From Eutypella sp. D-1 (Eukaryota; Ascomycota; Sordariomycetes; Xylariales; Diatrypaceae), in the NCBI GenBank assembly GCA_023313575.1, contig JAJTTP010000029.1, forward strand, positions 248,001 to 312,000: a DNA stretch of 64,000 nucleotides, in the 5' to 3' direction. Positions 1 through 29,206 of this stretch are shown piece after piece. The position numbers were made by a program, and so were the translations under genes. Under the pieces are notes generated by a model, which searched no databases, was not told the origin of the DNA, and was given only the letters and a program-made list of their open reading frames with translations. The stretch's first letter is position 1. Each line of letters starts with the position of its first letter.

Positions 1-1606
1 AAACGATAAAATATTTGCTTTTAAGCTAAAAACAGATAATAAAATTATAACGCTCGGTAAGCTATTTAAAGCTTTTAACCTTAAAAAACTAAACGTTTTA
101 TTTAAAAAAAATACCTTTCGACCCGAAATATATAACGCCGTTAAATACCGAGGTATAACGATATTTAAATTAAAAATGGTTCGTAAAATAAAAAGTAAAA
201 ACATTTTATTACTATATAAAAAATTACGGTTAATCGTTTAAAATTACGGAAATCCTAATAAAATTTTTATTATAACTTACGTACTTATTATTTAATAAGT
301 TAATTAACGTTTTATCTTAATAATCGCTTTTATTTTACGACTTAAAAAAATAAAAATTATAATATAAAATATTATTATGGCTTATATTTAATTTAAAACG
401 CCGATATAACGCATTATTTTCGTATAATTATTTATTAAATTAAAAAAAGAATACCCCGAAAAAACGTTCTTACGTGTTATTAAATTATTATACGGCTTTA
501 TAAAATTAAACATTTATTAATTTAAAACCTATTTAAAATATTATTAACGGGAATTATATATAAAACTATTAACATTTAACCCTTATTTATTAATATTAAA
601 CTTAAAACTATTCGGGATTATAAGATTTTAAACGGATAATACGTTTAATATCGGCATTATAAATTTTTTAACATTAAAAGATAAGGCATTTACTAAGGCA
701 AAAATAAAAGCATAACCTTAAAAGGTATTCGAAAATAAATTAATTAAAAACTTTAATAACTTTTAAATCGTTATTAATAAATATAAGGTATTTATTATAT
801 AAAAAGGATAAGCCGAAAAGTTAAAACCTTTCGATTTAAAAATAACCTTTTAAAAACTAATAAAAAAATATATCGAATAATAAACACAAGAAGTATATAT
901 TTTTTTTATTTATTAACCTAAAGCTGTTTTTAATTATTTTACGGTAATATAATATATTAAGCCTGGCCTTAAAAAGGTTAAAACATTAAATGTTAAAATT
1001 AAATAATAAATAAATAATAAAAATCGCGGATTTATATTCGTTAAATTAAACCTTAAGGACCTGAAATTATACGTTTTTATTAATAGCTTATTTGCTAATA
1101 ATAAAAATATAAGCTTATAAATCGGTTATATTATTATTTTAAGTAATAAGAAATTATAAGATAATAATAAACTTAATATTAAAAGTAATATTATTTATTA
1201 ATTATTTACTAAATATAAACGTATTATTTATAACGTCCTTATTAATAAGATTTATAACATAATTTAAAGGTTTAATATAAATTATATTATTTATTACACG
1301 TTAAATATTATCCTAACCCGATTATTACTCCTTTACGCTTTATTAATTTTATATATTAATTTTTTCTTTTTATATTAATGTTTAATATAAATAAATAATA
1401 TTAATAAAAAAAAATTAATAATCGATTTAATAACTTTACGGCAGTTTTATAAAAATAAGGAAATTAACGATATCCGATAAATTTATAATGCTTATAACCC
1501 TGCCGATACCATAACGAAAACCACCTTTAATAAGGTTATAAAAACGTTTATCGAAAATAACCAAATTATTTTAAAACTAAAAAAGTAAGTAAAACGGGAG
1601 TAATAT

Positions 1607-1899
1607 TATTAACGTTTATTATTTAATTATTTAATTATTTATTTACTTTTTATAACATTTTATAATTAATAAGTTACGAAAAGAAAATAAAATAAATATT
1701 AATTATTAATAATTACTGGTATAAACTTATATATTAGTAAAAAAGTACCTATGTACCTATCTCCCGTTTATATAAGGATACGGGCTTCGCCCGTATCCCT
1801 CTCAAATAAATAGATAGACCTTAAACCAGAATATAACACCAGTTTCACCACCTTTCATTCTGTTATTATCTCTTTCCTTTACGTACGTACCTACCAACA
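1607..1899 (+). repeat. Putative 3' LTR of the copia element
   Basis: This segment follows the pol frame after a purine-rich stretch at about 1594-1606, a possible polypurine tract. It ends in CCAACA at 1894-1899. The expected start TGTTG now reads TATTA, as RIP would produce, so the ends would form a TGTTG/CAACA terminal inverted repeat. A TATA-like box (TATATAAGG, 1769-1777) lies inside, as expected for an LTR promoter. Length is about 293 bp. The 5' boundary is inferred; the 3' boundary is supported by the ketosynthase frame resuming at 1900. Confidence 0.6.
1776..1798. repeat. Perfect hairpin just downstream of the LTR TATA box
   Basis: GGATACGGG (1776-1784) and CCCGTATCC (1790-1798) are perfect inverted repeats. 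The intervening CTTCG can add one more C-G pair. It lies in a GC-rich island within the otherwise AT-rich LTR, near the expected transcription start, so it would fall in the 5' end of an LTR transcript. Confidence 0.7.
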
Positions 1900-4800
1900 C
1901 ATTGGTATGAGTAATCTCCATCTTATCAATGGAACCGGTCATAGTTACCCATTCGACCAAAGAGGCACGGGCTACGGCCGTGGGGAGGGGTTCGTGGTCT
2001 TAGTGCTAAAACGACTCGATAAAGCCCTTGTCGACCGTGATCCCATCCGTGCCGTGATATGTAGCACTGCCGTCAATCAGAACGGCAATAGTACAAGGGG
2101 AATCATGCATCCTAATAGAAAAGCTCAGGTTGAATTAATCAGGACGGCATACGAACGTGCAGATCTAAACCCGCAAGACGTAACTTATATCGAAGCGCAT
2201 GGGACCGGCACTGTCGCTGGCGACCACGAAGAACTTGGTGCTATCGCCGAATCATTTTCCAGTCCCGGCCGCCCTCGTTCCTTGCCACTTTACGTTGGAT
2301 CGAATAAGGGCTGTATCGGCCATACCGAAAGTACGAGTGGCTTGGCTAGTATCGTCAAAGCCGTACTGATACTGGATCGACAAGTGGTTCCGCCCGTAGC
2401 TGGATATAAAGAGCCCAAGACGGGCCTTCCACTGGAATGCATACACATACCAGTAAAGCCAACCCCATTGCCGCAGCTAGAGCATATTACGCCACGGGTA
2501 TCAATTAATAGTTTTGGTTTCGGTGGAACTAGTAAGATCCTGCTGTACCGTAAACTGTATCCACACGTATGCTAATCATCATATCTTCTCAGATGCTCAT
2601 GCTATCGTGGAACGGGGTATACGGAGGCCACATGAAGCGATAGGGGGTTCTTGTGACGCCTCACCTAGGCTGTTCATACTCTCTGCAAATAGCCGGCGAT
2701 CTCTCATCACCTTACTTGTCGCTTATCGCGAATGGCTCGAGAACAACCCAGGGGCTGACTTAACTAGCCTTTCGTACACACTATGTTGCCGACGGACTAA
2801 GTTACCCTGGCGCTTCAGTTGTGTTGCACGTGACCTTAAAACTTTGAAGGAAAGTATACACACCCATCTCGATACATACAAGCCGACGTCCATCAGTACC
2901 TCCAACATTCTCAAGATTTTTGTTTTCGCCGGCCAGGGCACCCAATGGCTCGGCATGGGCCGCGAACTCCTCACGGAATGCCCTTCTTCAGTCTTCCGCG
3001 ACAACATTCAAGTCTCACGTGATATACTATTCAAACTAGGTGCTACTTGGGACCTCGAAGAGGAGTTGCTTTGTGAAGATGTTGAGCACAGTCTTCTCAA
3101 TACAGCAGAGCTAGCCCAGCCCGCGATAACGGCGTTGCAGATCGCGCTGGTATCGCTACTCGCAGCTCAAGGTGTTTCTCCAGACGTTGTAGTAGGCCAT
3201 TCAAGTGGAGAAATTGCTGCAGCGTTCGCAGCTGGATACTTGACGCACTCTACGGCCTTGGACATTGCCTATTATCGTGGGTTCTTAGGAGCCATTTCCA
3301 GGTCACGAAGTACTACGAGAGGCAGTATGATGTCGGTTGGCTTGGGGGAAGCAAAAGTGGTACCCTACCTGAACGCTTTGACCCGTGGGTATGCCACAAT
3401 AGCTTGTGTTAACAGCCCCAAGTCCGTTACGATATCTGGTGACGTCGATGCCATCGATGAATTGGCTTCGCACCTCGAGTCTACAAGTATATTCTTCCGT
3501 CGGCTGCCTATAGACACGGCCTACCACTCAGATCATATGCGTCTAGTAGCCGAGGACTACGAAAACCGTATTAGAGATCTTGAAGTCGCGTCATGTCACA
3601 GATATGTCACCTTTGTATCCTCCGTCTCAGGTCAGATGAAATCATCTGGTTTCGATGCTACATACTGGGTCACTAATTTAGTATCGCCCGTGCGTTTCTA
3701 TGACGCCGTCAAGACTATTGGAAACCAGTATCTCTCCAAGGGTTCCAGTACACTCCCACTGTTTATTGAGATTGGGCCACACCCATCACTGGCTGGAGCT
3801 GTCCGGCAGTCGCTCGAGACGATGCCAACGCCCAAAATCGAGTATACTTCGGTCTTGCAGCGGAAGGTGGGGGCTATGTCGAGCGCTTTAGCATTGGCTG
3901 GCAACTTGTACGAGCGCGGTGTCAATGTGGACTTTGCAGCCGTATTGGACCTATCCCCTAGGCTTGATGGGGCATCTGTCTTGCCGAACCTCCCCACGTA
4001 TACGTGGGACCACTCAGTCAAGCATTGGTATGAATCACGAATCAGTCGCGATTACCGTCTACGCCGTGCACCATATCATGATCTACTCGGGATACGGATA
4101 GATTCGACTTCCATCGAGCCACGTTGGCGCCACATTGTTGATCTGACCGCCCTGCCTTGGTTAGCTGACCACATTGTGGATGGCCTCGTGGTATTTCCGG
4201 GATCTGGATACCTATGTATGGCTTTCGAGGCTATTTTACAGCTTAGCCAAGATTCGAATCTAACATTGGAGACTATTTCTGTTCGTGATGTGGCGTTCCT
4301 GCGAGCCTTCGTCGTTCCACACCCTCCCGAGCGCACAGAGATGCAACTCAGTTTCAAACCGAGCGGAGCGGGAAAATTGCATTTTCATTTCTCCATTGCC
4401 ATATATACTGATGGCAAGTGGTATGAGCACTGCAATGGGACTATCAAAGGAGTTCCTTCTGATGGATATAAAAATGCCGGGCTAGCAACTACGCCATGTA
4501 CAGACCACGCGCCATCTATTCTTCTCAGCGGTAAAAGCTTCATAGAGGAGGAAGAGCTCTACTCCCAACTCGAAGCGTCAGGTAATAAATATGGCCCATT
4601 ATTCAGGGGCTGTAAGTCCCTTCAACTCATGCCGAACATGATGGGTGCTACAGGTGAAGTCGAGATACCGAATATTACCAAAGTCATGCCAGCAGGCCAC
4701 CAGGAACGACACCTTATACACCCCTCGACTCTCGACATAATCTTTCATACGAGCTTGTTGCCTGTGAAACAGTCATTGGGTATGGGTTCTGTTGTTCCAG

Positions 4801-7800
4801 TCCATATGGACGAGCTCTTGATATCTGGGCCAGTGGCGATGCCTCGAGATGCGGGTGCCCGGATGAACGTGATGGCGTTACCGACATCTAGCCACTTCCA
4901 TAAAAGAACTGCTTACGTCAACCTTCATGTGGAAGCGGGCACTACCCCAGTACTCTCAGTTACTGGGATGGAAATGCGAAGCATCTCATCTACTTCAGAC
5001 CGGCCCAATACTGCCGCGAAGCCTAAGAATATCTGCTATACCCTGGATTGGAAGGCGGATCTTGACTTCATTCGCTCGGAGGACTTATCACGTCCATGCC
5101 TTACTAAGCTCATCGATCACATCTGTTTCAAATATGCAGACATATCCATTATGGAATTTAAGGGCGATCATGAGGATCTCTCCCCAACCATCCTCCCCAT
5201 GATTGATGCGCAAGGCGGTAAGGTGTCTTCTTATACTTGCATTGACCTGAGGCGGGAGATTGGGAATCATCAAACCACATACCAGGAACCGATTGATACT
5301 CGAGTGAAACTCAAGACTCTGAACGCGAATGCGGGTCATGCCGATGAGGACTTCCAACAGCAGTCATCCACTGTCGTGTTAATAATGGCAATAGAGGATC
5401 TTAAACACGCATGCGCTGTGGTTGAGTTAAATGGGATTGTGTTGATCTTGCTCAAAGGTCATGATGGTTCGCCAAAGGATGTACTCGGCATCATTGATCG
5501 AGAAGTTTCAGATACGCTGGACATTCAACTGGAATTCTTTGACGCCGATCGGGACAGACTTGTCATCGCTTTACGACGAAAAAGTATCAGTGAAGTCAGG
5601 TTACTCCCCAAGACCATCCGCATCTTGACTCATTCGCCGATTTATTCGACTCCATCATGGGTGACGGCACTGGCGACTAGGCTCGGTGATTGCGTAGACA
5701 GCGTCACACTCGACCAGATATCTCCTGATCACGTCAATGATGCGCATCGCGATGTCTGCTTCCTAGTAGTCGAAGACTGTCCAGATCCGATCTTGTCTGA
5801 CGAGAATTGCTTTAGCGCCGTCAAAAAACTATTACAATGTCCGGCCCGGATTCTCTGGCTGTGCCCCGACAATCCTCCCCAGATGTACCAAATCTCCGGT
5901 TTCTCTCGCACTGCTCACGCTGAGAATACTAAGCTGCGGCTCATCACAGCTCACGCAGCAGTCGAGATACTTGAAGAAGATGAGACTCGGAACCTTCGTC
6001 TCACTAACTTCTTAGTCAATTGTCTTGGCTGCTTGGCTGCCGGGAGCGACGAGCTGCAGCCCGAGCGTGAGTATCTCATTCGCGGCGATGGTACTGTTCT
6101 TGTACCCCGCTTACAACACAGCGAAACACTTGATAAGATTGTGGCTGTCGACAAACCACAACAGTCCGAGGAGCTGCATATGTGCCGCTTTGTGGATGCT
6201 TCACGAACTCTTAAAGTTTCATCCGATAGTGCTGTTAGCAGTATTGATACCCCTGTCGCCTTCGTCGAAGATCCGGTTGCGGACACATCCGGCCTCCCCG
6301 AAGATGAAATAGAAGTGGAGACCAGAGCTGTTGGATTGACGGATGCCCACCGGACTACATCTTTATGTGAATATGCAGGAATTGTCACTCGTGTCGGATC
6401 AAGTGAAGGCAAGTTTAGTCCAGGAGACCGTGTCGTTGGCATAGGGACGCGTGTGGGTTCCAGCCGCCCACATATCTCCCTGCGTCAAGCTCTCCACTTG
6501 CCGGTGAACATACCATTCACTCACGGTGCAGAACTGCTCTTCAGCGTGTTGGCAGCTTGCTATGCACTGAAAAGACTGAGACATCTAATCTCGTCAGAAC
6601 ACGTGCTTATTCACGGCGCTTTGACCCCAGTCGGACGTGCAGTTGTCGCCGTGGCACGAACCATTGGCGCACGCATCACTGTTCTGGCTTCGGATGCTGT
6701 TGAGTCCCATGACCTGATGTACCAGCTGAACATAACGGCGGACCAAATCCTCGACGCTAGGATTTCACTGAAGCGACGAATACAATGGAGTAACATGCAT
6801 AGGGCCGGATTCGATGTCATTGTTCAAGCAACCGAGAAAAGCATACCATCGGGAGTGCTTGGCCAACTAAACAAATTTGGAAGCCTCATTTTCATCCAGA
6901 CTCCTTCTCGTTTCACCGAAAGACCAAAGGCGCTGCACAATGCTACAATACACGCGTTTAATATTATAGACGTGCTGCGCTCTGATCCAAACCATATTAC
7001 AGAACTTATGATCGAAGCTTCACTTTCCTTCAAGAGCCTACCAACGGATGGTCTCGTTTTCGCTGTTCGTGATGTGGCTGAGGTATCTGAGGCCGTGCGA
7101 CTCCTGGATACTGGCACACATAACAGGATCGTCCTAAGTGCTGAGAAGGACTCGATGGCGCCCTGCATCCTGCCAGTCTGCACGGCTCAAAATGGGTGGC
7201 AGAGGAGTGATGTGTCATATGTTATAGCTGGTGGTCTTGGTGATCTCGGCAGGCGAATTTTGGTGCTCATGGCCCGCCGGGGGGCCCAGCACTTGGTGAC
7301 TATTTCACGACGGGTCGTTAGAGATGACGATCATGAAGACTTGCAGATGCAGCTACACATGATTTGCCCCGGGTGCCGCCTTTATTGCTTGAGTGGAGAC
7401 ATCACGTCGGGCGAAGACATGGAAAAGGCTGCCACATCCCTTGCTAGGATGGGCGTTCCACCCGTTGGCGGGATCATACAATCTGCTGTTATTCTTCAGG
7501 TAAGAATAATTCCGGCTTAAGTACTACCCCTCTGTGGATTATACAGAAACAGCATCAGATGCCCATCGATACTAACAGATATAGGACCGGACGCTTGATG
7601 CAATGACCCACGATGAATACCTCGTCGCGAGCCGGATTAAAGTTGATGGTACACTCACACTACAGAGGACATTCGCATCCCCTCATCTAGTTTTTATTAT
7701 GACCCTCTCATCGGCCTCGACCATCGTTGGAACAAGCGGCCAAGGAAATTATAATGCTGGAAACACGGTTCAAGATGCCTTGCCACACACTCACATCGAT

Positions 7801-10377
7801 GCCCCCTACAACTTCATGTCTCTGAATATTGGGTGGATTGAAGACGCTCTCGCCACCGCAGATGATAAATCGCGACAGCGTGGTCTAAGTCGGGCTGGTC
7901 TTCGAAGTATTCACCCCGAAGAATTGTCGCGGTATCTCGACCATGCCCTCGGCACGGCATTGAGCAGAGTGCGTAGCCCACAGACGGTCATTGGCTTCGA
8001 TTCGACCTCCCTCTCCCACGCTTCTGATTACAGCAATAATGGAAACATCCACTCTGCCATGTTCCGACACGTTTATCAGGCGGGCGTGGCCAGATCGACT
8101 CCATCGGCCCCAGATGCACTCTCGTTCAAAGAAATAGCGTCAAGCGGCGACCGCGAAGCACTGGTCGGTCTAATCGCGAATTCTATTACGCGTAAACTCA
8201 CGCAGCTGATATCTGACGACGCTGTGCATGTCCACGAGGAAAATCGTTCAATCCTCGAGTTGGGACTCGACTCACTTGTTGCTATAGAGTTACGCAACTG
8301 GATTAGCCAGGAGTTCTACGCCCCCATGCAGTCGTCCGAGATCATCCTAGAGCAGACAATCCGAGCGCTGGCGGAGAAAGTCGCCTCCCGCTCACAGTCT
8401 AGCATAGCGGCGCTGGATGAACAACGACGTAAGGATGAGATCCCTAAAGGTGCTTCCGATCAGGAGGCCACGCTCTCGGAGGAACTAGATTATGACACTC
8501 CAACTACTAGTCTGGCGACCGATCTACCGCTGGCTTCGCTGCCCACGCTCAACCATACCATCCGGTTATTCCAGGATTCTCGAATTGCTGTTGACACGGA
8601 GACAGATCAAACCTCTCTCGTTGATGCAGTCTCTAGCTTTATGGACGGTGGAGGTCCAGCATTACAACAACAGCTGGAAATGGCAGCACCCGAGCTCATC
8701 GCTGAAAACTACGAACGGCTGATATATCTCGAGCGGCGTGAGCCTCTTCAAGATTACAGCACGTTTTCGATCGTCCACCCCTTCGATGCGCCAACGCATA
8801 CCCAAGCAATGCGAGCTGCACTCGTAACAATAGCAGGACTAACATTTATACATGACTTGGCTACTAACCGACCTCGTGGTATCGACGTTAGGAGTGAAGC
8901 TTTGGATTGGATGTTCTACACAGTACGACAGCCTGGTATAGGCGTGGATCGCGTGGCTCGGTTTACTGCTAACGAGACTGTCGCTGTCCTACGCCGAGGG
9001 CACGTGTTCCAGTTGATGCTTGGGGATGTATCAGGACCTCTGAGCGTACTGGCTATGCATAAAGCTTACTCTGCCATTATTGACGCTTCGGAGGGATCGA
9101 GGGAACCAGTGTGTGCGCTGACCGCAGACGAGCGCAGCTCATGGGCCTCAGTAAGTTTCCCCATGCATCACTTACATATCCACCTAGCATTTCAAAGACT
9201 AATCAATGGCCCGGCGTTGAAAATGTAGCTTCGCAGTGACCTTGAGCGCGACCCGGTGAATTCTATCGTCTTGTCGGCAATAGAAGAGGCAGCCTTCGTA
9301 GTGTGCCTGGACGACGAATCACCTAGCACAGCTGGAGAGCGGCATACGCAATTCCTTCACAACGGCGTCGGCCGTCCATTTTCCAACCGTTGGTTGGACA
9401 AGCCCGTCCAATTCGTGGTAACTGCGAATAGTTTATCTGCCGGTATCCACGAACACACCAAGCTCGATGGACTAGACGTGGGACCCTTGCACCGACATAT
9501 CGTAAAAACACTAATGTCGTCATACCAACAACACGATGGGGAGGTCTCAAGGTTGCCACCTGACGGTGAAGCCGTTCAAACTTCTCCTTACCCCATCCGA
9601 GAACTTGTTTGGACACCAGGAACAGCAGCGGAGAAGCACATCAGGCACCTGCAGACAGCTTTTGCCTCGCCCACATTTCCCTACCGAGCCCTGGGCTATG
9701 AGCACGTCAAATGCATTGGACTGAGTCGCGCATCTCTTCGCGGGCGCGGCGCCAGCCCCAACTCCATCGCCCACCTAACTGCTGTCCTGGCAGTCTTCTT
9801 AGTGGATGGTTTCGTGCGGCCGGCGTGGGAGGTGGTGTCACTTGGGCACTTCGCCTGGGGCCGCATCGATTGGGTTCAGACCGTGTCACCGGCTATGCGA
9901 GAGTTTGTTGAGGCCGCAGCTTGTATTAACATGGATGAAGATGATGAACCCAGTCGATCCCGCCTCCGTCTCTTACTCCATGCGGCGGCCCGCTCCTACT
10001 CGAGAACAGTATCCACCGCTATGCAAGGATCCGGCTACGTCAGCCATCTATATTCGCTACGAGCTTTAGCTGAGGAATCCAAAACTGGAGACCTGCCGGC
10101 CCTCTTCCAGACAAAGGCTTGGGATGCAACCCGCCGGGGTGGTGCTGGCCAAGATCTAAAGATTGGTTTCATGCCGTCTGGAGAGGAAGAAGGAAATGGC
10201 AACGCGCTGTATCGTGAGGGAGGTTTCTTGATGACCGGCGACCGGGGGGTTTATATCCACTGTGACGTTTCGGAGGAGAAGGCCGATTTTTACGTCTCGG
10301 CCCGGACGCAGTATGCAGCGGATGTATATTTGGCCCTACAGAAGGCATCCAGCATGGTCTCACGTCTTCTCAGGTGA
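1900..10377 (+). CDS. Highly reducing polyketide synthase with C-terminal carnitine acyltransferase domain, 5' end interrupted
   Basis: Exons: 1900-2531, 2593-7499, 7585-9150 and 9229-10377, giving 2750 residues in one frame. Order: C-terminal part of KS (EAHGTGT and NKGCIGH histidines present; the catalytic cysteine would lie upstream and is absent); AT (AGQGTQW near 2925, GHSSGE near 3198); DH from about 4078 (catalytic His in LADHIVDG, later HPSTLD); a linker at about 5030-6250 where a methyltransferase should be but with no SAM-binding motif; ER at about 6270-7160, whose usual GGVGQ nucleotide motif reads LTPVGR; KR from about 7200 (GGLGDLG, active-site Ser, Tyr and Asn near 7709-7762); ACP with GLDSL at about 8265; and from about 8540 a choline/carnitine acyltransferase-like domain with EHTKLDG (9451-9471). 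The reading frame starts directly at the LTR end, so the gene appears split by the retrotransposon. An alternative last intron (10374-10437) would end it at 10465 with eight more residues. Confidence 0.9.
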
Positions 10378-16749: not shown

Positions 16750-18544
16750 ATGGGTAGCGACAAAGAATCATCAGGCCCCTCTGCCACGGGCCAGTACGAT
16801 GATACGAACCCCTTACCACCGCTACTCAGTGATGATAGCTCTGCTGTCGATATCGAGAAGCTAGGAAGGCACCGACCGGATACCTTCAGCAACGGATGGG
16901 TTGAGATTGGGTTCTGCATTTCCGTCCTTGGGTCAATGATGCTTGCTGAGTTTCTCGTCAGCGGTTTTAATGGTGCGTGACTCCTAAAAGCTACGTATCA
17001 CATCTAGGAAACAAGCTTGCTCCTTAGCTTTGCTCAAAAGTCTACGTGAAGCCCTTTAAAGCTCCCTGGGTGCCCTTCTAATTATTGTAATACTTATGAC
17101 AATACCTATAGGCAGCGGCTAACTCTGCGAGGAATATAGTCTTACTCCCAGTTCTCATCGAAGCCACAGGCATCGACCCGAACCAGAAGATTTGGCCGAC
17201 TTCCGTTTTCTCCCTTGTGACCGGATCACTTTTACTTCCCTTTGGGCGTATCGTTGACATATATGGGCCCTTTCCTGTATATCTGGGTGGTATCTCGTGG
17301 TTGATGATATGGTCGCTTATCGGCGGCTTCAGTCGGACTTTGCCCATGATATTGGCCACGAGGGCCCTACAAGGTGTCGGCGCCGCAGCCTTTCTGCCTG
17401 CAGGGACGACATTGCTGGGTACCACCTATCGCCCTGGCCCACGGAAGAACATCGTCTTCAGCTTGTATGGAGGCTGTGCGCCACTAGGATTCTATTCAGG
17501 AATCCTAATTGCTGGACTCTGTGGGCAGTTTCTTTACTGGGGCTGGTTTTTCTGGATTGCGTCTATCATGCTGTTTACATTGTGCCTGCTCACATTTTTC
17601 TGCGTACCACGCGAGTACAAGAGAGGAAATATTTTGACCTCGATGGACTGGTTAGGTTGTCTAACCATCGTATCCAGCCTCAGCTTGATCACGTACGCTG
17701 TGACCGACTCATCTCACGTTGATGGCGAGTGGGCTTCACCCAAGATTATAGTCACGTTTGTACTGGGCATTGTCACCCTGGCTGTTTTCATTTATGTCGA
17801 AGGGTGGGTTGCAGAGACTCCTCTCCTACCATTGAGTCTATTTTCCATTAAGTACACAGGACCACTGTTCCTGGCCCTCTTCTTCGGATACGGCAGCTTT
17901 GGAATCTTCCTCTTCTACGCCAGTTTCTAGTAAGTCAAATGTCCCTCTGCGCTATAAAGACACGTAGAGGTTGGCTAACAAGTACCACTAGCATCGAAAC
18001 GATTCTCAATGTATCTCCGCTACTCGCTGCGGTCTGGTTTACTCCAATGGCGGTTGGCGGAATGCTAATCGCCGTTGTTGGAGGAGCAACCCTTCATAAG
18101 CTGCCAGGCACTATACTCCTTCTATTGTCTGGGTCGGGCTTTGTGGTCTGCTCTCTGTTATTCGCGCTCATACCTGACAATCCCAACTATTGGGCCTGGG
18201 TTTTCCCGGCAATGGTATGCACAACCATAGGCATCGACATTAGTTACAATGTCAGCGGAATATTCATCACTACCAGCGTACCCAAAGATCAACAAGGGCT
18301 GGCAGGAGCATGTATCAATGGCCTGGTGTTCTTCGGCATCAGCTTTTTCCTTGGTTGGGCGGATTTTGCGGTCGCTAGCAGATCACACAGCAATGCAGGT
18401 GAGAGCTATAAGACCGCTTTTTGGCTCGCCGTCGGATGTGGGGGGGTAGTGATTCTACTCGTGTTAGGTTTTATTAGGATAGGCCGAGCGAAAAGTGACC
18501 TTACAGCAGAAGAGAAGGCCCGCAGTCGGAAAGCCGACCAATAG
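16750..18544 (+). CDS. MFS drug/metabolite exporter (DHA type)
   Basis: Three exons: 16750-16972, 17116-17929 and 17992-18544, giving 530 codons (529 aa). The acidic, soluble N-terminus leads into TM1 (LAEFLVSGFN). The second exon carries the WPTSVFSL segment and the GRIVDIYG loop between TM2 and TM3, matching the MFS signature (G-x3-D-x-G type), and then RALQGVGAA, the motif C/TM4-like region. The last exon supplies the second helix bundle and ends in a charged tail. The sequence resembles drug:H+ antiporters that export fungal metabolites or toxins. Its place between a PKS, two regulators and tailoring enzymes suggests export of the cluster product; the substrate is inferred only from context. 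Confidence 0.88.
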
Positions 18545-19065
18545 ATTAGAGGAGGTCAAAAGAATCTACCGAGGTCACTGTCACACTGACTTGGCTTAAA
18601 GATACGGGTTCCGTTATAGCTGAAGTGACTTCCATCATCCTTGTTTTACTGCGATGCTTTCGACAAATATCCAAAGCAAATAAATGACTTTTACACTATT
18701 AAAGCCAGTCCGAGAATTTATTTCTAAAAAGACCTAACCCCTTTTCCCCTGCAGCAATCGCTAGTATCTTTTGTAATTGGCACTAGGTGGTAGCTTGTTC
18801 ATTTTCTGCCTGGTCGCCAACTCCGCCTAGATCATGCTAGTACTACCTTATCGCGTCATCTACCATCAATTTCAACCACTCACAAATCCGATTAATCCCC
18901 TAGGAGAGCGGATCGGTCAAGAATGAGTAATATCAGCAGGGATAGCCCTTTATGAGATGTCCGTGTCAAGGGACCACTATTTATTAGTCGCGTCCCCCAC
19001 TACCAGGAATTACATTTCGCAAAACACCTTTACCAGACTCCATCACCCACGAGAAGGACGAGAGC
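18545..19065 (+). promoter_or_regulatory. Intergenic, MFS 3' end and TF promoter
   Basis: This 521-bp tandem spacer contains the 3' UTR of the exporter and the upstream region of the next transcription factor. No gene or clear motif was seen. Confidence 0.5.
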
Positions 19066-20654
19066 ATGTCAGCACCGACACAACCCCCGACTCAGTCCGA
19101 TGCGTTTTCAAAATGCTGGACCTGCCGCAGAAGACGTGTCACATGTGATGGCTCACAGCCAACTTGCTTCAAATGCCAAAAAACCGGCCGCCACTGTCTT
19201 GGGTATGGCCAGAATAAACCACTAGTCTGGGTTGGGCTAGCAAGTAGGGGGAAAATGGCCGGCCGAGACTTCAAGGATCAATCGACATCATCGTCTATGA
19301 TTACACAACTCGCCGCCAAGACCATGTCAGACCCTGCTTTTCAAGATCTGGGTCCCCGATCTAAACAATACCTCTTCTACTGTATGGCCCATTTTCTTGA
19401 TCACGTTGCCCAACAAAGTCTCTGACGGTTATGTTAGACATTCATCGCTGCTGCACTGAGTGTACTTTATATGGCGACGACTCCCAGAACCGTTTCAAAC
19501 AGTTTTTAGCCTTGATGCCAAGCAGTCCCGCCATAACTCACAGTCTTATTGCCATTTCTGCCTCCCATCAGGCGCATTCAATGGCTCCTATTCCTAAGGC
19601 TGTGTTGCCACCTGCGACAGAAGGGCAACCCCATCTTACCTATGCAGGTGGCGATAACTTAAGTTGCAGTGATCTAGCCTTGACCCGGACCTCAGATGCC
19701 TTAGCTCACTCAACGTTGAGTGTGGGGTCGCTGAGAGCAGCTCTGGGATGTTCCGACCGCTCGGATGCTCTGGTTGCTACGATTTTCTTGTTAGTATGGC
19801 TCGACCTGGTGGATGACGGAAGGACGGCTTGGAAGCAGCATTTAGATGGCCTCAAAGTCTTGCTTTCCCTACGCAGGCATCCAACAAGAATAAAGTCCAA
19901 TTCACATTTTCAAAGATGGTTTGAAGAAACCTTTGCAGTGTAAGTAGCCAGGAAGTCTTTCCCGATTTCGTCCCTTCTGACAAGTTATAGGTTATCACTA
20001 TTTGGCTCGACTTTTGATCCTAGCTTATTACAACTACTCGACATCTTCCCGCACTCTCAACTAGGCGAGGTATTTAGCAAAGCAGAGACACACAGTTGGT
20101 CAGGCTGTCCATCCGATCTACTCGGGATCTTATACACTTTCATTTATTCATCGCATGGCGGTGCACTCCCGTCGGTCCAAGATGTTTCCGAGCTATTTGC
20201 TCGTTTGCAAGACTTTGACTGCATGTCCTGGTCGGCCAAGTCACCAGAACCCTCCTCGTTACATGCAAGGCGATCACTAGCTGAAGCCTGGAAAGGGGCA
20301 ATCGAGATTTACGGTCGTCAAGTACTTGGTGCACAATATCCGGACTTCTATAGAGTTCCTGGCAAATTGGTCGAAACCACACTTAACAACATAGCGCAAA
20401 TCCCTCATGATGATACGCATTTCAAAGGAACAGTCTGGCCAACCTTTGTCGCTGGTGCGGAGGCTGAGACCCCTCAGCAACGTCAAGCCACGAGAAGTCT
20501 CTTTGGAAGTTTAATCGGTTTCTTGCATTTGTCCACCCTCCATGTGGCATTCTCTCAACTGGAAAGAATATGGGCTCGTCCTTCGACATACCCGCCTGAT
20601 GGGTCTTGGGTCAAAGACATTTGGGAACGTCAAGAAGGACTTCTGTTGGTTTAA
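19066..20654 (+). CDS. Zn2Cys6 transcription factor (first)
   Basis: Three exons: 19066-19381, 19438-19939 and 19991-20654, giving 494 codons (493 aa). The zinc cluster is at residues about 17-43, with spacing C-x2-C-x6-C-x6-C-x2-C-x6-C (CWTCRRRRVTC, then CFKCQKTGRHC). Downstream is the helical fungal-specific regulatory region (LMPSSPAITHSL and following) typical of DUF3468-type regulators. The apparent stop at 19423 is removed by intron 1 (56 bp, branch CTGAC, acceptor TTAG), which restores the expected middle region, so the gene is intact. The start ATG is the first one upstream of the zinc cluster in frame. It is a plausible local regulator of the PKS neighbourhood; targets are unknown. 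Confidence 0.87.
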
Positions 20655-21454
20655 GTGTCTTGGTCAGGGCGCCACAGCACTACACTGCAAGCACGAATAG
20701 CCCTTAGGGGGTGGATGGCCACGATATAGAAACGCGTAGCGGACGCGTATATGCGCTCGGATCACCTTGCAGATACGGGGACGGGTGGGTCCGCCCCCGT
20801 CTCGCCTCGCGCACCCTTACGCAACAGCTAGGTATATCCGAACACTGTACGCCACACTTCGTGCATTCATATAAGCTAGCGCCTTGAACCAGTACCAAGG
20901 CTACCGAGCCTTCAGCACTGCCGGGGCTGCTGGGGTTGAATGGTATTCTGGACCACTAAGCCTTCCCATCTAAGTGACATTATCGTCCATAGCTGAGTTG
21001 TAACAGCTACAAACTATGTCGTCCCAACTGTTGCTCGCTTTCCTTTGATTTCGGTGCAACCGTATAGGGTCCGATTTCAGGTTGACTTTTACTTCAAGTC
21101 CAACGCCGTCTTCGTCAACAAACGTTCCTATACAAAGCTACAATTTACCACCCTTGACTTCACGTGCTCAGATGCATTGCCTGTGACATAAATCAGTAAG
21201 AGTCACGCCAAAAAAGGCCTAGTCTACTACATCTATGGTTAAAAGGTACACTTTCTGCGGATGATGAAAAAGGAAAGCCGGAAGAACTAACAAGTAAGCC
21301 CAATTACGGACACAAAAACACCGAGCCAAGCGACGAGTATCTTAAGTGGCTTCGCCTTATTGATAAGTTGTGGTATCTCCCCACCATGCGGGGCCGTTGT
21401 TTCCAAAGGACTATGCAATTCATCAGCCACCGAAACAATGCAATTCACGTGTTT
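20655..21454. other. Intergenic between convergent transcription factor genes
   Basis: This 800-bp spacer between two convergent regulators is expected to hold both 3' UTRs. Nothing else was recognised. Confidence 0.5.
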
Positions 21455-24400
21455 TCATACATTTCGCTGGTCAGGGAAGGTCCCAAGTATATCCTGCGGG
21501 ATCATTGAATCCCAAAAGTCGTGCAACTGCAGCAAATCAGTGTCGGTCTTCGGTAGTCGAGGTACTGGACTCACAATATCATCAGTCGACTCAAAAGTTG
21601 CGAATGATGGTGATCTCCCGGAAGATACCGATTCGAGATTGTTTGGTTGGCTTTTAGGAGTACCGAAGTGATTTTGGTTCGGTGGCAAATTTGAGATATC
21701 TATGATGTGAGGTCCGATAGTTCTCACAGTTTGATGATCTTGGCCCGCCCGCTCAATGAGTCTAGTGCGCCAACCAAGTAGCTCTACATCTTCGCCGTCC
21801 TCTTTATCTTCCCCTATTCTTTGCCGGTCTGTGTCTGTGTCTCGTGGCAAGCCGTCCCTTTTTCCAGTAGAGGTCGCCGAAATCTTAGAAAATGCTCGGG
21901 CACGTAGCTTTATGAGCCATTGCAGGTTACGTTGATACCGGGGAGTACCGCGACCCATGTGGATTAAAGAGGTGAATAAACGGATAGCACTATCAATCTG
22001 CTCAAGAACAAAAGGGGCCATAGCGTTGGCTGGATCACGCAACACCAGCGTTCCTAAGCACAGAGCCGAACCAAATACGTGGAACTAGGGAATTCGTGAG
22101 CTTCCCCATCTCAAGATAGTAATGGGTTTAATCTCACCCAAAAGTTCCATTGCCTGGTGCTGACGACAGGAAAGCGAGCATGTATATCGGCGACGATGGT
22201 AATCATGATCTATTGATATCAGATCACTGTAAAAAGAACACTGGAGACTTGGCTTACTGCGCAACGTTCGATCACCGTTAAGTATGAGGGCGCATATACA
22301 GAAGCGACGCGATCGTCAATATTTTCGTAGAGTGCTTTTGCATAATATGGCCGATGAAGGTTGATGATCGTCTCAGAGATATTAAGCGCAAGATTCATTT
22401 GCTAATTGGCGTCAGCTGAGATAGTCCAGATTGACGCTACATATAAGACTGACTTGGAATGACACCGTCATCGACCTCCGGGACGGTTCTGGAGATGCTT
22501 CAATGGCAGCTTCGGGCTGAGAGTACTGAGAGGGCATCGCCAGTAGTGCTGCTCGACTTCGAAGGTAAAACGGAAGGGTGCGTTCGAACTCGCAGCTAGA
22601 CCGTTTCAGCTTATAGATAGAATTTCTTATGCGGGCACATACAGCTTGACGTGCAAATCGGTGACAGTGGAGTACTCCGGTTTCTGCACCTTCATAGCCA
22701 TGTTAAGACACCTGATAGTCAATTAGCCACGAGAAGACATCCACTCCTGAATCCATGATAGAAATACATACTCGGATGAAAGCTGAGATAGCTCAAACCG
22801 GAGTATAGAATAGCTCTTCACGCCACCAACGTTTAACGGCTCCGTGGGAAACGCGGTGTCACAATGCTCGGGGTTGATAGCAGAACTGTACCATATCAGC
22901 TCAGTTACACGTAATTGTGTAGGTGGATCTTACGGCCTCGAGAAGCAATGCGCCTGGAATATGTCGGCGGCATTGCACTCCCAGAATACCTTGCGTCTCT
23001 CTTCAACAACATCCTGTGGTAGATTCCATCGAGTACCATCCCGATGCATACCCATCTGTGTTCTTTATCAGCAAAAGCTCGAACGCCAAGACTTGAACCT
23101 ACCGCTTGTATCAAACGCATAATTAATCCCCATAGAGGGTAGGCATTATCACCGCGCCGACCTTTGTCTAGTTGCCTAATCACACGTCAGAAACGCAAGG
23201 GAGGTCCAGATCATATTACGTACAGGTGCAGATGCGCCATTAAATGCTAAACTTTTATTAGCGACTTTGCAGAACCGGCGACCTCAGAACTTACAAGAGT
23301 TTGCAATCCAGCGACCGTGTTATTCGATAGGAAGTCGCCTTTGACTAACGCCCGTTCGGAAAGATGTAACAGCTCTTCAGCAGATGAATCGTTGTCGGCC
23401 GTCTCAATATTGAACATGGTGCCTTGAGCCATGATAATGAAAACGAGTGCAATCTCCTGAGGATCAACGGGAGACAAGGAACCCGCTTCCAACAGCGTAT
23501 AAATATGATTGAACGTCTTTTGAAATGAAGTCTTGGGCGCAACATCGTGACTGAACACCTTTGTTAGCCGTTTCTCTGATTATTTGCCCATCTCACTCAC
23601 TGCCACGCGCAATAGCGATAATAGGACTCAACTAGTGTCCACGCCTCATCTCTGGGTGGTAGGCATGAGAGGAGGTCGCGAGTACTGATACGAGCTGGCG
23701 CGGCGTTGAAGGGAAAGGCGATAGGAGATATGTCGGGAATAGGGCGACCATGCTCAGACAGAAGCGAGATTCGGGTATTTTCCGGGGAAGGAGCGCGAGT
23801 AGCTATTGGGGTAGTCGACACATCTTGCGTTTCCGACTAGCTGGTTTTTAGCTGGGTTGGCGTTAGTCAAGCAAGACAACTTACATCTTTCAGCCATTCA
23901 CTTCCCGCCGTCGGGCCTAAGTACTTGGATCGGCCTCCTTTAGAGAGCATCAATGTGCCATGAGAACCATTCTGCTCGCCATGGTCAATGTGTTGCAATG
24001 CAGTGCTACTAGAACCACCGTCTCTGCTCGGAATGCCATTCAAAGGCCCAGCATTGCCAGGAGTCAATGATGGTGGACTCTGCGAGATAGCGCCCTGAAC
24101 AATGCATGGACCGAGGGAACGAGAGAGAAGGGAGAACTGGCCGGACTGGTCCTGGTTCCTGGTGTCTTGAGCGACCGGGGTACGGTTTTGGTCCTGCGAC
24201 GACCTTTGCGCCGTTGTTGATGTCCTAGATTGAAGCTGAGGTTGTGATGGATGGGGGTGATGTGACTGTTGGTCCTGATACAGTTCTTGATGACCGAAGC
24301 CTAAGGATGGAGCTGAGATGGACTGTCCTTGTTCTACTGGGGTTTGCGGTTGTTGAGCTTGCGCTGCATTCTGCCGTTGTGCAAGACGCGCAACGGACTC

Positions 24401-24824
24401 TCGGCTAGAGATACAGTCAGTTCCTGTGTGTGCCAGCCTATCATAGAGGAGAACGAACCGAGATGATGTTCCTCTGGCCGGAGCTCCATTGCAGAACTCG
24501 GCCCGGTGTCGGCGGACGCAGTGCGAACATGGCACTGCAATATCTTTCCAGCTTGTGAACGACTACTGTATGGTATACTACTACTAACCTCGCCGATCGC
24601 ACTTCATCTTGAGTCTGCGACATTCTGAGCATCGGACATCAGCGCGCTATGACCATGACCCTAGACGTTTCAGAGATCGGGTTACCTTCACAACTGAAGC
24701 ACGGCCTCTGTTTTCGCGGCTTCTTGCCGGCTTTTCGTGCATCGTCGGGGCCTCCACCCCAACGCGTGTCATTCACGGGTGCGTCGGACGCGGCCGATTG
24801 GTCCGGTTGTAGTTCGTTCGTCAT
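21455..24824 (-). CDS. Zn2Cys6 transcription factor (second), 14 exons
   Basis: Exons (minus): 24824-24686, 24624-24589, 24534-23885, 23836-23601, 23550-23295, 23246-23224, 23175-23103, 23055-22934, 22885-22772, 22711-22643, 22595-22454, 22401-22258, 22209-22138 and 22084-21455. The sum is exactly 902 codons (901 aa). The zinc cluster spans exons 1-3: SCEEC, RRLKMKC, then CSHC and a last Cys, spacing C-x2-C-x6-C-x5-C-x2-C-x8-C. A Gln/Ser/Pro-rich region follows (about residues 100-260). The fungal-specific TF domain comes next, with PLWGLIMRLIQA, GMHRDGTRWNLP and FWECNAADIFQAH, and later LHRPYYAKALYEN. Thirteen introns in 3.4 kb and a 23-nt exon are striking, yet every junction keeps frame, so it appears functional. 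It is divergent from the flavin monooxygenase across only 389 bp. Confidence 0.88.
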
Positions 24825-25213
24825 CTCCGCGCGTATGATTGGGTTCAGTGGGTTGCATCGTCCGTGAACATAGATAACAAGGAGGTGTGTACCCGGATAT
24901 GGAATGCGCAAGACCAGGAAGGGCAGCATCGGGTTTGAGAAGTAATAGGACTTCGCCCGATCATGTGACGCGCTTAGAGGTTGGTAGTGCGGCAGTATTT
25001 CTCCACCGTGGCGGACCTCGGCAGCACCCAGCTCGTGAGCTACTAAGTTATCCCCGGCCCATCAATAAGCGTCTAATTGACTAAGTGGCGACACATCAAA
25101 TCGTCGGACGTAATCAGACGTGTTGTCTTAGTATGTAAAGCAGCAGAGCTGCATGGAGACTCAATGGACGGGAACAGCAGGAGACAACATTCAGCGTCTT
25201 TACATCTGCAGAA
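24825..25213. promoter_or_regulatory. Divergent promoter, TF2 / flavin monooxygenase
   Basis: A short 389-bp bidirectional upstream region is shared by the second regulator and the monooxygenase. This arrangement is common for a regulator and its target gene. No binding site could be assigned by eye. Confidence 0.55.
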
Positions 25214-27248
25214 ATGGCCCCCATGAGCGTTCACGAATTTGCCGCTGACAGTGATGTCGGCGTCGCCGACCTCAAGGCCAAAGTCCTCGTCAACAATGTC
25301 GAGCTGGAGGCTAGCCCTAAGCCTCCTGTCGCAGACGACTTTATGTACGACTTCAAGTACAACCACGGTCTTCCCACTACCGACGTTCTAGGAATCGAGA
25401 TTCCTACGGATTGTGATGCGCAGAAGGAAGCCGAGAAGGTTGTGGCGCGCCTCTCGGGGGTCATGAGAGCTGGAGATGCTCAAGCGTTCGCCGATCTGTT
25501 TCTTGAATATGGTGAATATCCCCTTTACACAAGATTGTAATGGTCTAACTGACTCGGTATGCAGGTGTTTGGCGCGATAAGCTGTCCTTCACCTGGGACT
25601 ACCGGACATTCAACTTCAAACCAGCAATCCTAAAGGCCGCTGGCGACCTTTTCCCAAAGGCCCAGGCTACCAACTTCAAGTTCCTCAGACCTACCCCCAA
25701 AGTTGTCTGTCATTATCCCAACTTTTCCCTGTTGCAATTCGTCGTGTCGTTCGAAACCGACGTCGTTGATGCTTCAGCGGTAATCAACGCGGTTCTCACC
25801 AAGGAGGGCTGGAAGATGTACACCATGCATACCGTTGCCGAGAAACTTAAGCAGTTCCCCGAGCTCCCCTCTGCTGACGGGCATATGACCGGACCCATCA
25901 GCTGGGAGGCGCAAAGGGCGAAGGACATTGATGCCGCCGACCCTGAAGTTCTAATCGTTGGTGGTGGTCAAAAGTGGGTATTTCTAATTTCCAACCCCGC
26001 TGATAGGTGTTGACATTTAGTAGTGGTCTCGCGATGGCCGCCCGGCTAAAGGCGCTCGGTATGGACAGTCTCATCATAGATCAGAGCGCCGAAGTTGGTG
26101 ATGTCTGGAAGAAGCGCTATGAATATCTGTCCCTTCATTTCCCCCATTGGGCTGATGACCTACCCTACTTCCCCTATCCCAAGCATTGGCCTACCTATAC
26201 TCCATCTCAGAAGCAAGGTATATATATGGAGTGGTACGCCTCGGCCCTTGAGCTCAACGTCTGGTGCAAATCGTCGGTCGTCAACGCCGAGCAAGACGAC
26301 CATGGTAACTGGGTTGTGGAGATTAACAAGGAGGGCAAGGAGACCCGAAAACTACATCCCAAGCAGATAATCATGGCCACCTCTCTCTGTGGTGCCCCTA
26401 TGACCCCTGCCATTCCTGGCATGGCCGACTACAAGGGCGGTGTCATCCGCCACTCGACTACACATGACAGTTCCCGCGATTTCGTCGGAAAGAAGGTCTG
26501 CGTCGTGGGTGCTTCATCCTCTGCATTCGACACTGCTTACGACTGCTCGCGCCGGGGCATCGATGTCACCCTTCTCCAACGATCTCCAACCTATATTATG
26601 TCTCTCACTCATTCCGTGCCCCGAATTATTGGCAACTACGCGCCTAATGCCGACGGCGACCGCCCGAATCTCGAGGAGCAGGACCGTCTCTTCTTTGCCA
26701 ACCCAATCGGACCTGGTGAGGAACTCGGCAGGCGTAGCGCCAAGGTCCTTGAGGACCTTGACCGGCCTCTGCTCGATGCGCTCCATGCCCGTGGTCTCAG
26801 AACATGGCGAGGCCAGCGTAGTACTGGTAGCGGGACGTTGGGTCAGACCCGCAACGGTGGCTTCTATTATGACGCCGGTGCTTGCGAGCACATCATTAAT
26901 GGCAAGATCAAAGTAGAGCCGGGTTACATTGAAAGGTTTACAGAGGATAAGGTGGTCCTGGATGGCGGCCGCGAGCGTCAATACGACCTGATCGTCTTCG
27001 CCACCGGCTTCTCCAACCCCATTGACTCGGTTCGAGCTACGCTTGGCGATAGAATCGCTAGTAAGTGTGGTCCGATTTGGGGAATTGACGAGGAAGGCGA
27101 GTTCAAGACGGTTTACAGGGAGAGCGGAGTGCCCAATCTATGGATTATGGCTGGCTACCTTCCGATGACCCGCTTCCATTCAAAGCTACTTGCTATGCGA
27201 TTGAAGGCTCTGAAAGAAGGCATATCCCTACCCCCTTACAAGCAGTAG
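25214..27248 (+). CDS. Flavin-containing monooxygenase with NTF2-like N-terminal region
   Basis: Three exons: 25214-25511, 25565-25973 and 26021-27248, giving 645 codons (644 aa). Residues about 75-195 (KVVARLSGVMRAGD to the WKMYTMHTV strand) resemble an NTF2/SnoaL-like fold. The catalytic part begins at about residue 230 with the FAD-binding GGGQNSG, whose codons are split by intron 2. It continues with the GDVWKKRYEYLSLHFP block, an NADPH-binding VVGASSSAFD and the C-terminal FATGF motif. This is the group that includes class B flavin monooxygenases and YUCCA-like enzymes. It probably oxygenates a small molecule in the cytosol with NADPH and O2; hydroxylation versus Baeyer-Villiger activity cannot be told from sequence. 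As a divergent neighbour of a regulator it is a good tailoring-enzyme candidate. Confidence 0.9.
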
Positions 27249-27962
27249 ATATCCTATGTAGTATTTTCGTGGTTCATGATGGTATTGACAAGCTTTGGTG
27301 AGCATACTTCACACGGAGAATCCACCTTATTTTGCTTGCTACCAAGTACCATACAATTGTGGACCCGACAGAGCAAGTTCTCATACAGTTGTCTTTCTGG
27401 CCTAGGTAACTAGAGAGTGTAATTGGTATATTACTTGCTAGATGGCGAAAGGATTCATTGATCTATATCTTATGGTTTTCTGCACATAATACGATTGGTC
27501 CCGGTATCAGAGGACTTCCCGCTTATTTTCCGATATTCAATGCATACGGGCTGGTCTCAGACGACTATATCAAATATAAGCATTGTCTCTACATATAAAT
27601 ACATTATCGAGGCTAAGAAGTATCCTGATCGACCATCATATCCCGTAGTATATGTGCTGAAGGGGCCGCGGTTATAGACGAGACACGAACCTCCCTCATC
27701 CCGTCATTGCCAGGGCTCAACCAGAGACAACACACCGTTTCAAATTATACTTTCTCCATTACTTCATTTAATCCCATTGACTTGAATTATTGTCACAGTG
27801 CGTTACGTTGACCCCAGGTACCAAGTGGTTCTATTGTGGCATGATGAAGTGAAGCACGAGGGTCTATCTAATACGTGCCAGTGCACTGCGACCCATGCAT
27901 CTATCACATGACAACTATGGAAATATTTCAAGGGACGTGACTTCGCATGTCTTCAGCTTGGC
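27249..27962. other. Intergenic between convergent FMO and AKR genes
   Basis: A 714-bp spacer at two 3' ends. No gene or repeat was recognised. Confidence 0.5.
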
Positions 27963-29206
27963 TTATTTTGATCCAACGGGACCATACCAGTCATCAAACC
28001 CGAGGTCGAACCCCCACAGAGGGGTGTTGATCCGCTGCGCCTTGCCCTTAGCAGCCAGACCGTCAAGAACAGCCAAGTCCTCCTTGGAGAGTGAGATAAC
28101 TTCCTTGTTACTGGAAATGCGTTTCTCGGTAACGGATTTCGGTATTACGACAACACCCTTGTTTACATGGTAGCTGATCAGGATCGTGGCGGCCGAAACA
28201 CCATTCTTTTCGGCAATCTTCTTTATCTCGTCGTCGGACATGATTGGAGCCCCTAGTTAAGTCAGCAAATCTGGTCGAACCGACGCTAACCTAAGCTTAC
28301 CGGTGGAACCAAGAGGCGAATATGCTTCGAGCAAAATGCCGAGCTTTTCGCAGTGCGCTTTGAGCTCGTGCTGAGGGAGGAAGGGGTGTAGCTCGACTTG
28401 ATTTACGGCAGGCACTATCGTCCACGTTTTCCGAAGTTGCTCTAAGTAGGGAATTGACCAGTTGGCAAGTCCAATCGCCTTGACCTTACCCGACTTGTAG
28501 ACCTCTTCCATCTGTCGCCACGTCTCACCCTGATCCCATGATCGGTCAACGGAGCGGGTGCCGTCGGAGTTAAGCGGAAGTAGCTCGCTCGTCTCGTTCT
28601 ATTCACGAATTAGCGGCGTAGAGCTCAAGGAGCATCAAAGGGCTTACTGGAACGAGTCGAACCGGCCAGTGAATAAGCTAATGGTAATAGTCAGTCCCAG
28701 CTGTGCAAGATGATATACCTCAGCGGCTTACATAAAGGTCGAGGTAGTCCGTTCCCAGGGCATCAAGGGTCTTTTGCAGACCCTCCTTCACGTCGGGCTG
28801 GTGGGTATTCCATAGCTTGCTCGTGATAAAAATCTCTTCACGGGGAATGCCACTGTCTTTAATTCCCTGGCCAACTTCATTCTCGTTACCTAGAAATATT
28901 GTCAGCCTAGCTGTCAATCTATCGGCGCCAGTTCAACTTACCGTAGATGCTACGCATGGTTAGCGAGAACTAGTGTAAGGAGCATGAGAAACTTACAGGG
29001 CGGCATCAATATGACGATAACCATCCTTGAGGGCATAAGCCACGGATTTTCGAACCTCGCCGGGCTCAGATTTCCACGTTCCTGTTTATAATGTTGGTGT
29101 TAGGAGCGGACACAGAGCATGATAGGCATGGGCATGGGCACTAACCGAGACCGATGGCGGGAATCTGAGCGCCAGTGTTGAGCGTGAAGTGAGTGGGAGG
29201 AGCCAT
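27963..29206 (-). CDS. Aldo/keto reductase
   Basis: Seven exons (minus): 29206-29146, 29081-28997, 28949-28942, 28889-28732, 28677-28648, 28598-28301 and 28252-27963. The sum is 310 codons (309 aa), the standard AKR size. All four catalytic residues are present: Asp (HIDAA), Tyr (IYGNE), Lys (ITSKLW) and His (LIHWP). The (beta/alpha)8 signatures [13 protein letters not shown] and VIPKSV follow. Exon 3 is only 8 nt and carries the catalytic Tyr codon. The enzyme would reduce aldehydes or ketones with NADPH in the cytosol; similar fungal AKRs act in xylose or glycerol metabolism and in polyketide tailoring. Its place beside the monooxygenase makes a tailoring role possible, but a primary-metabolism role is equally compatible. 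Confidence 0.9.

What the first reader, a model, noticed from the sequence alone, without database searches (positions are those of the whole stretch)
1600..1930. Copia retrotransposon inserted inside the ketosynthase of a PKS gene
The LTR end (CAACA at 1895-1899) abuts sequence that at once reads as ketosynthase (C ATT GGT ATG AGT, then SNLHL). The conserved upstream KS half with its active-site Cys is not in the window. This predicts a split gene whose first KS part lies left of the element, with a 5-bp target duplication of CATTG (1900-1904).
Basis: partly seen in the sequence, partly recalled or inferred. Interest (0 to 1): 0.8.

Follow-up and report, generated by a model that had tools for sequence, protein, structure and literature searches.

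The report
Gene halves lost between recombining retrotransposons
A fungal polyketide-synthase gene really does begin at the end of a retrotransposon, but it does not look like a simply split gene: nested retrotransposons seem to have recombined and deleted the front of this gene together with the front of its neighbour.

Summary
The junction is real: LTR terminus CCAACA (window 1894-1899) abuts an in-frame ketosynthase (KS) remnant. The simple "insertion that split the gene" reading fails its own test. Reading leftward (window = C22:248001-312000), the 5' LTR lies at C22:240215; before it stands AATTA, not CATTG, then the back part of a divergent fungal-rhodopsin gene, not the KS front. Searches of the assembly found no orphan KS front. 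The nearest PKS paralogue (C45) has its KS front and a decayed rhodopsin relative (reciprocal hit) in the same divergent position, so both flanks are probably old neighbours that lost their 5' ends together. The 9,685-bp block is chimeric at two levels. Outer element A has mismatched target duplications, unlike LTRs and a 3.3-kb internal gap; nested Gypsy element D has a type-1 5' LTR, a type-2 3' end and mismatched duplications. Controls elsewhere: 8 of 9 A pairs and 4 of 4 fully read D copies have duplications that match (one A pair at 4 of 5). Best explanation: A inserted in each gene, D in each A, and D x D recombination deleted everything between. A known process, well documented here; assembly misjoin is the main rival.

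The parts
1..1696 (+). 3' internal part of outer LTR element A (copy A2), heavily RIP-mutated; continues left of the window to C22:247863, where it meets element D
   Evidence: transversion-only (RY) match, best windows 1.0, to positions 4504-6603 of the C4 copy L049; GC 0.18 and CRI 0.98
1697..1899 (+). 3' LTR of A2, terminus CCAACA; its outer part is little RIP-mutated
   Evidence: 0 transversions in 202 sites against each LTR of the C4 copy, 5 against the 5' LTR of its own block
1900..1904 (+). CATTG, the 5 bp beside the A2 terminus (would-be target duplication); the far side has AATTA
1900..2531 (+). KS remnant: last 44 positions of ketoacyl-synt plus the C-terminal KS domain; active-site Cys region missing, both His motifs present by reading (motifs recalled)
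2532..2592 (+). inferred intron (GT...AG) linking the two frames of the KS end
   Evidence: reading; overlap of ORFs 1814-2575 and 2481-7520
2593..7499 (+). AT, DH and first half of KR of the highly reducing PKS, open frame
7500..7584 (+). inferred intron
   Evidence: reading
7585..10377 (+). KR end, ACP and carnitine O-acyltransferase domain; the in-frame TAG at 9226-9228 lies at the end of an inferred 78-bp intron 9151-9228; the true C-terminus may lie beyond another intron

Best explanation
The joint at window 1899/1900 is the right edge of a deletion made by ectopic homologous recombination between nested LTR retrotransposons. Inferred order: (1) two copies of LTR element A inserted in the same orientation into two neighbouring, divergently transcribed genes, A1 in the rhodopsin-like gene (target AATTA) and A2 in the ketosynthase of the PKS gene (target CATTG). 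(2) A Gypsy element D inserted into each A: D1 (LTR type 1) about 1.06 kb into A1, D2 (LTR type 2) about 4.3 kb into A2. (3) D1 and D2 recombined within their shared internal tract (about 5 kb). This removed the rest of D1 and A1, the 5' part of the rhodopsin gene, the shared promoter region, the PKS start with the KS active-site half, and the front of A2 and D2. The remaining block (C22:240215-249899) is A1-front / D-chimera / A2-back, RIP-mutated throughout. The remaining PKS lacks promoter, start and KS active-site Cys and is inferred to be a null allele, although its other exons are still open. Shown in the assembly: both flanks, the chimeric structure, the unmatched duplications, no KS front found. 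Inferred: the order of events, and that the deletion happened within one locus.
For: (a) Far flank is a Fung_rhodopsin C-terminal part on the minus strand, not KS. (b) The C45 paralogue has its KS front and a rhodopsin relative in the same divergent position; the two rhodopsin pieces find each other (6 places, C45 third after self and C14; 2 places, self and C22). (c) Target duplications of A: of 9 other LTR pairs read, 7 exact, 1 at 4 of 5, 1 mismatch (C18); C22 has AATTA/CATTG. (d) The A LTRs in C22 differ by 5 transversions in 202 sites and by a 5-bp indel; the within-copy pairs of C4, C5 and C34 differ by 0, 0 and 1 and share the indel state. The A front is nearest to C5 (1.5% transversions; C34 5.2%, C4 11.5%), the A back to C4 (2.0%; C5 3.4%, C34 3.6%). 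(e) L049 positions about 1250-4520 of A are not found in the block, where D sits instead. (f) D: 21 of 21 separating sites in L038 1185-1384 are type 1; 130 of 132 in L038 6785-7784 are type 2; between, 1385-6384, 6 and 5. Of 6 other D copies tried, 5 show one LTR type at both ends, 4 of 4 with both flanks read have exact duplications, 1 (C12) was uninterpretable; C22 D has ATTTA/AATAA. (g) No KS front: the C45 exon 1 finds no non-self place above 49% identity among 34 rows (best-scoring 44%), where about 70% was expected from the KS back; the next 60 residues none above 64% among 32 rows.
Against: Raw reads were not available, so an assembly misjoin through D cannot be excluded. The C45 rhodopsin piece is only 34-35% identical and carries stops; a C14 copy scores higher (39.2 against 31.9 bits, 28% identity). 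AATTA/CATTG agree at 3 of 5 positions, as do ATTTA/AATAA. One control pair, C18, also mismatches. By transversions the C22 5' LTR is hardly nearer to C5 (4 of 207) than to C4 (5 of 202); the subtype claim rests on the indel and the internal sequence, against three other copies only. The crossover cannot be placed: D types 1 and 2 hardly differ by transversions between L038 1385 and 6384. The 5' half of the rhodopsin gene was not sought separately.
Confidence: 0.83

Rival explanations
1. Simple insertion: one element inserted into KS and split the gene.
For: LTR terminus abuts KS in frame.
Against: Far flank is a different gene and AATTA; LTRs unlike; D chimeric.
Confidence: 0.02
2. Assembly artefact: the assembler joined two D copies and dropped the stretch between them, or joined two loci.
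For: The joint lies in an abundant repeat: 43 matches, self included, from 40 scored of 211 candidates. A misjoin would give the same chimerism.
Against: 8 of 9 other A pairs and 4 of 4 fully read D copies have duplications that match at both ends, one A pair at 4 of 5, so 6-7 kb repeats are generally resolved. The C45 order suggests the flanks belong together. A dropped stretch could turn up in another contig, and the KS front was not found.
Confidence: 0.1
3. Translocation: the two flanks come from different loci, joined by recombination between A/D copies on different chromosomes.
For: The same chimeric signature would be expected (inference; the signature itself is).
Against: Reciprocal rhodopsin hit beside the nearest PKS paralogue. 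The reciprocal product should carry the KS front, which was not found. The search for CATTG beside an A 5' LTR start gave 6 places, each with one mismatch, none CATTG; the search for an A 3' LTR end followed by AATTA gave 0. Both patterns would miss strongly mutated LTRs.
Confidence: 0.04
4. Single A insertion with later gene conversion of LTRs and an independent flanking deletion that happened to end at the LTR.
For: Gene conversion is named as one cause of disparate LTRs (PMC10787394, passage seen).
Against: Needs conversion in both A and D, a deletion ending exactly at the A 5' terminus, and a separate cause for the internal gap in A.
Confidence: 0.01

Closest known systems
crapaud LTR retrotransposons of Podospora (PMC10787394; abstract and passages seen)
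   Same: LTR subfamilies that differ in the 5' half of the LTR; 7 of 150 full copies with disparate 5' and 3' ends, ascribed there to gene conversion or ectopic recombination; RIP
   Different: Here a disparate copy is tied to unmatched target duplications and to two truncated flanking genes, which favours recombination over conversion. Kinship of D with crapaud was not tested.
TE-mediated ectopic recombination in Cochliobolus heterostrophus (PMC4112212; passages seen)
   Same: Signs of recombination among Gypsy copies, RIP, PKS genes near elements
   Different: There inferred with recombination-detection programs over element alignments; here one joint is read with its flanks.
Fungal reducing PKS with C-terminal carnitine acyltransferase domain (named homologues with PF00755 in Xylaria, Apiospora and Diatrype)
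   Same: AT, DH, KR, ACP and carnitine acyltransferase domains
   Different: KS front absent

Membership tests
Intact LTR retrotransposon insertion | Matching 5-bp target duplication | tested here: not met
   AATTA/CATTG
Intact LTR retrotransposon insertion | Both LTRs of one origin | tested here: not met
   5 transversions and a 5-bp indel; D types 1 and 2
Recombinant joint between two LTR element copies | Ends from different subtypes and different target sites | tested here: met
   in the assembly, reads not seen
Recombinant joint between two LTR element copies | Loss of the host DNA between the two sites | tested here: inconclusive
   KS front not found in the assembly and not at the joint; the rhodopsin front is not at the joint but was not sought genome-wide
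Copia (element A) | RVT_2 and integrase-before-RT order | tested here: inconclusive
   No Pfam hit in RIP-mutated frames; one search finds 2 RVT_2 places, neither in an A copy read here
Gypsy (element D) | RVT_1, then RNase H, then integrase region | tested here: met
   C45 copy L086, X at stops: RVT_1, RT_RNaseH, Tf2-1-like SH3 in this order; the integrase zinc-binding match is weak (E 0.079)
Highly reducing PKS | Complete KS with active-site Cys | tested here: not met
   Only ketoacyl-synt positions 209-252 remain
Highly reducing PKS | AT, DH, KR, ACP | tested here: met

The most novel reading that the evidence does not exclude
D1 and D2 recombined after they had already been diverged by RIP (other long D matches are now 83-89% identical to the C22 copy over the 2-kb probe). 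RIP divergence would then not have protected this locus from ectopic recombination.
Probability: 0.2. Interest if true: 0.55.

Novelty: new member of a known kind. Interest (0 to 1): 0.42.

Why it matters
It replaces an apparent gene-splitting insertion by a probable two-gene deletion, and shows that a RIP-insensitive (transversion-only) comparison can recover a recombination joint in sequence that RIP has made hard to align. It also shows how a polyketide pathway could be lost in one step through nested repeats. An annotation that reads the locus as 'PKS interrupted by a transposon' would be wrong.

Tried and rejected
Looked for a KS front inside the AT-rich block and in the 30 kb to the left by tblastn: nothing convincing (best E in these loci 0.12, from an out-of-frame query). 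Looked for an orphan KS front genome-wide with the Pfam family and with two pieces of the C45 paralogue: each of the 34 rows has a KS-back hit within about 2 kb on the same contig, checked by eye. Rejected an internal LTR of A in the block: one strong hit only, the 5' LTR. First took the right-hand type-1 LTR in the block as D's own 3' LTR; it is a solo LTR inside D with a matching ATATT duplication, and D's 3' LTR is type 2. Rejected the TAG at 9226 as a nonsense mutation (inferred intron). Synteny with C45 beyond rhodopsin and PKS: none found at E 1e-3 within the 18 kb of C45 read. The closest outside homologue P0001 (80% over 64% of the query) begins just before the AT part, at the place of the inferred intron, so it says nothing on KS. 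Other A pairs about 13 kb apart (C11, C4 left, C56, C1 left) were not examined. Literature: five searches; one search returned no paper.

Full report
The window is C22:248001-312000 of an unnamed 48.5-Mb, 72-contig assembly. The nearest named PKS homologues include Xylaria, Hypoxylon and Rosellinia, fungi that I recall as Sordariomycetes; the species itself is not known to me.

Junction. At 1894-1899 an LTR ends in CCAACA and at 1900 KS sequence begins in frame. Pfam sees positions 209-252 of ketoacyl-synt, nearly all of Ketoacyl-synt_C, then AT, DH, KR, ACP and a carnitine acyltransferase domain across three further open stretches. The introns are inferred by reading. The active-site Cys segment, visible in the C45 paralogue (motif recalled), lies upstream of the junction and is missing.

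Far side. The AT-rich block runs to C22:240215, where an LTR starts TGTTGG. The 5 bp before it are AATTA. The flank is the C-terminal part of a fungal rhodopsin gene on the minus strand (profile positions 163-237 of 237), so both flanking genes point away from the block and both lack their 5' part. KS is not there: neither the KS profile nor the C45 KS front matches the 30 kb to the left. In the whole assembly the C45 exon 1 finds no place other than itself above 49% identity among 34 rows, the best-scoring one at 44%. The next 60 residues find none other above 64% among 32 rows. Each row has a KS back of its own nearby. The surviving KS back is 70% identical to C45.

Yardstick locus. In C45 the KS front of the PKS starts at about 1341066, and about 2.5 kb upstream on the other strand lies a stretch that matches the C22 rhodopsin remnant. 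It is not the top non-self hit there: a C14 place scores higher (39.2 against 31.9 bits). Searched back, the C45 stretch finds only itself and C22. It contains three TAG codons, so it is a decayed or intron-broken copy. By this yardstick roughly 3 kb of host DNA is missing at C22; that figure is an extrapolation from the residue alignment.

The outer element A. Transversion-only comparison with the C4 copy shows A sequence at both ends of the block, with about 3.3 kb of A missing between; the C34 copy gives the same picture. The C5 copy also matches parts of D's LTRs, because it carries a D-type LTR of its own. The 9,685-bp block is longer than the three whole copies read (6,382, 6,312 and 7,412 bp). 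Nine other LTR pairs gave 7 exact duplications, 1 with 4 of 5, and 1 mismatch, C18; these were pairs I could form from the listed hits, not a random sample. In C22 the two LTRs differ by 5 transversions and a 5-bp indel. Within C4, C5 and C34 the LTR pairs differ by 0, 0 and 1 transversions and share the indel state. The front internal piece is closest to C5, the back piece to C4; the 5' LTR by transversions alone is about as far from C5 (4 of 207) as from C4 (5 of 202).

The nested element D. It spans C22:241184-247862 (L038 1184-7862) and is Gypsy-like by RVT_1, RNase H and Tf2-1-like domains in the C45 copy. Its LTRs come in types that differ in the 5' half. Its 5' LTR is type 1 and its 3' end type 2: 21 of 21 and 130 of 132 separating transversion sites in L038 1185-1384 and 6785-7784. 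Between 1385 and 6384 the two types differ at 11 sites only (6 type 1, 5 type 2), so the crossover lies there or near but cannot be placed. In L038 6385-6584 the counts are 2 and 4, next to the solo LTR. Six other D copies were tried: C5, C13, C45, C71 and C10 have one type at both ends (types assigned by reading and by the matches); C5, C45, C71 and C10 have exact 5-bp duplications; C13's far flank was not read; C12 was not interpretable. C22 D has ATTTA and AATAA. A solo type-1 LTR inside D (L038 6534-6948) keeps its ATATT duplication, so duplications can survive in RIP-mutated sequence here.

Reading. Mismatched sites and mismatched subtypes at both the A and the D level, an A gap at D, and two genes that have each lost the end facing the block, fit one event: recombination between D copies nested in two A copies. 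Gene conversion would have to strike twice and would not explain the flanks. A balanced translocation should leave the KS front elsewhere. A misjoin in assembly remains possible and is the main reason for the confidence given.

RIP. The parts of the block have GC 0.16-0.33 and CRI 0.72-1.03; the PKS side has GC 0.50-0.52 and the left flank 0.46, all with negative CRI, so RIP stops at the LTR edges. Whether the recombination preceded RIP cannot be told from this copy alone.

Literature. Disparate ends in 7 of 150 crapaud copies were ascribed to gene conversion or ectopic recombination (PMC10787394, abstract and passages). TE-driven ectopic recombination in a fungus with RIP is reported in PMC4112212 (passages) and discussed as a cause of deletions near metabolite clusters in PMC5576322 (passages). 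REANNOTATE (PMC2672092, passages) notes that intra-element LTRs that do not cluster reveal inter-element recombination. The process is known.

Noticed in passing
G000 C18:372717-385825: A-type LTR pair about 13.1 kb apart whose flanking 5-mers do not match (TAATC/GATCT); possibly a second joint of the same kind, or two separate elements.
   Followed up: no
G000 C12:3610921-3614272: An A-type LTR pair only 3.35 kb apart with an exact TTTCT duplication: an internally deleted or short derivative.
   Followed up: no
C22:246534-246948 (L038 6534-6948): Solo type-1 D-family LTR inside D with a matching ATATT duplication.
   Followed up: yes
G000 C45:1338310-1338609: Rhodopsin-like relative beside the PKS paralogue carries three TAG codons in its matching frame: decayed, or broken by introns.
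   Followed up: partly
window 17112-31575: Downstream genes: MFS transporter, fungal transcription-factor domain (two frames), flavin monooxygenase, lactonase; an MFS transporter also lies left of the rhodopsin remnant. Looks like a metabolite cluster.
   Followed up: no
window 1770-1899: The outer part of the 3' LTR facing the PKS is much less RIP-mutated than the rest of the block; the outer end of the 3' LTR is likewise mild in C4, C34 and C5 (read from the alignment).
   Followed up: partly
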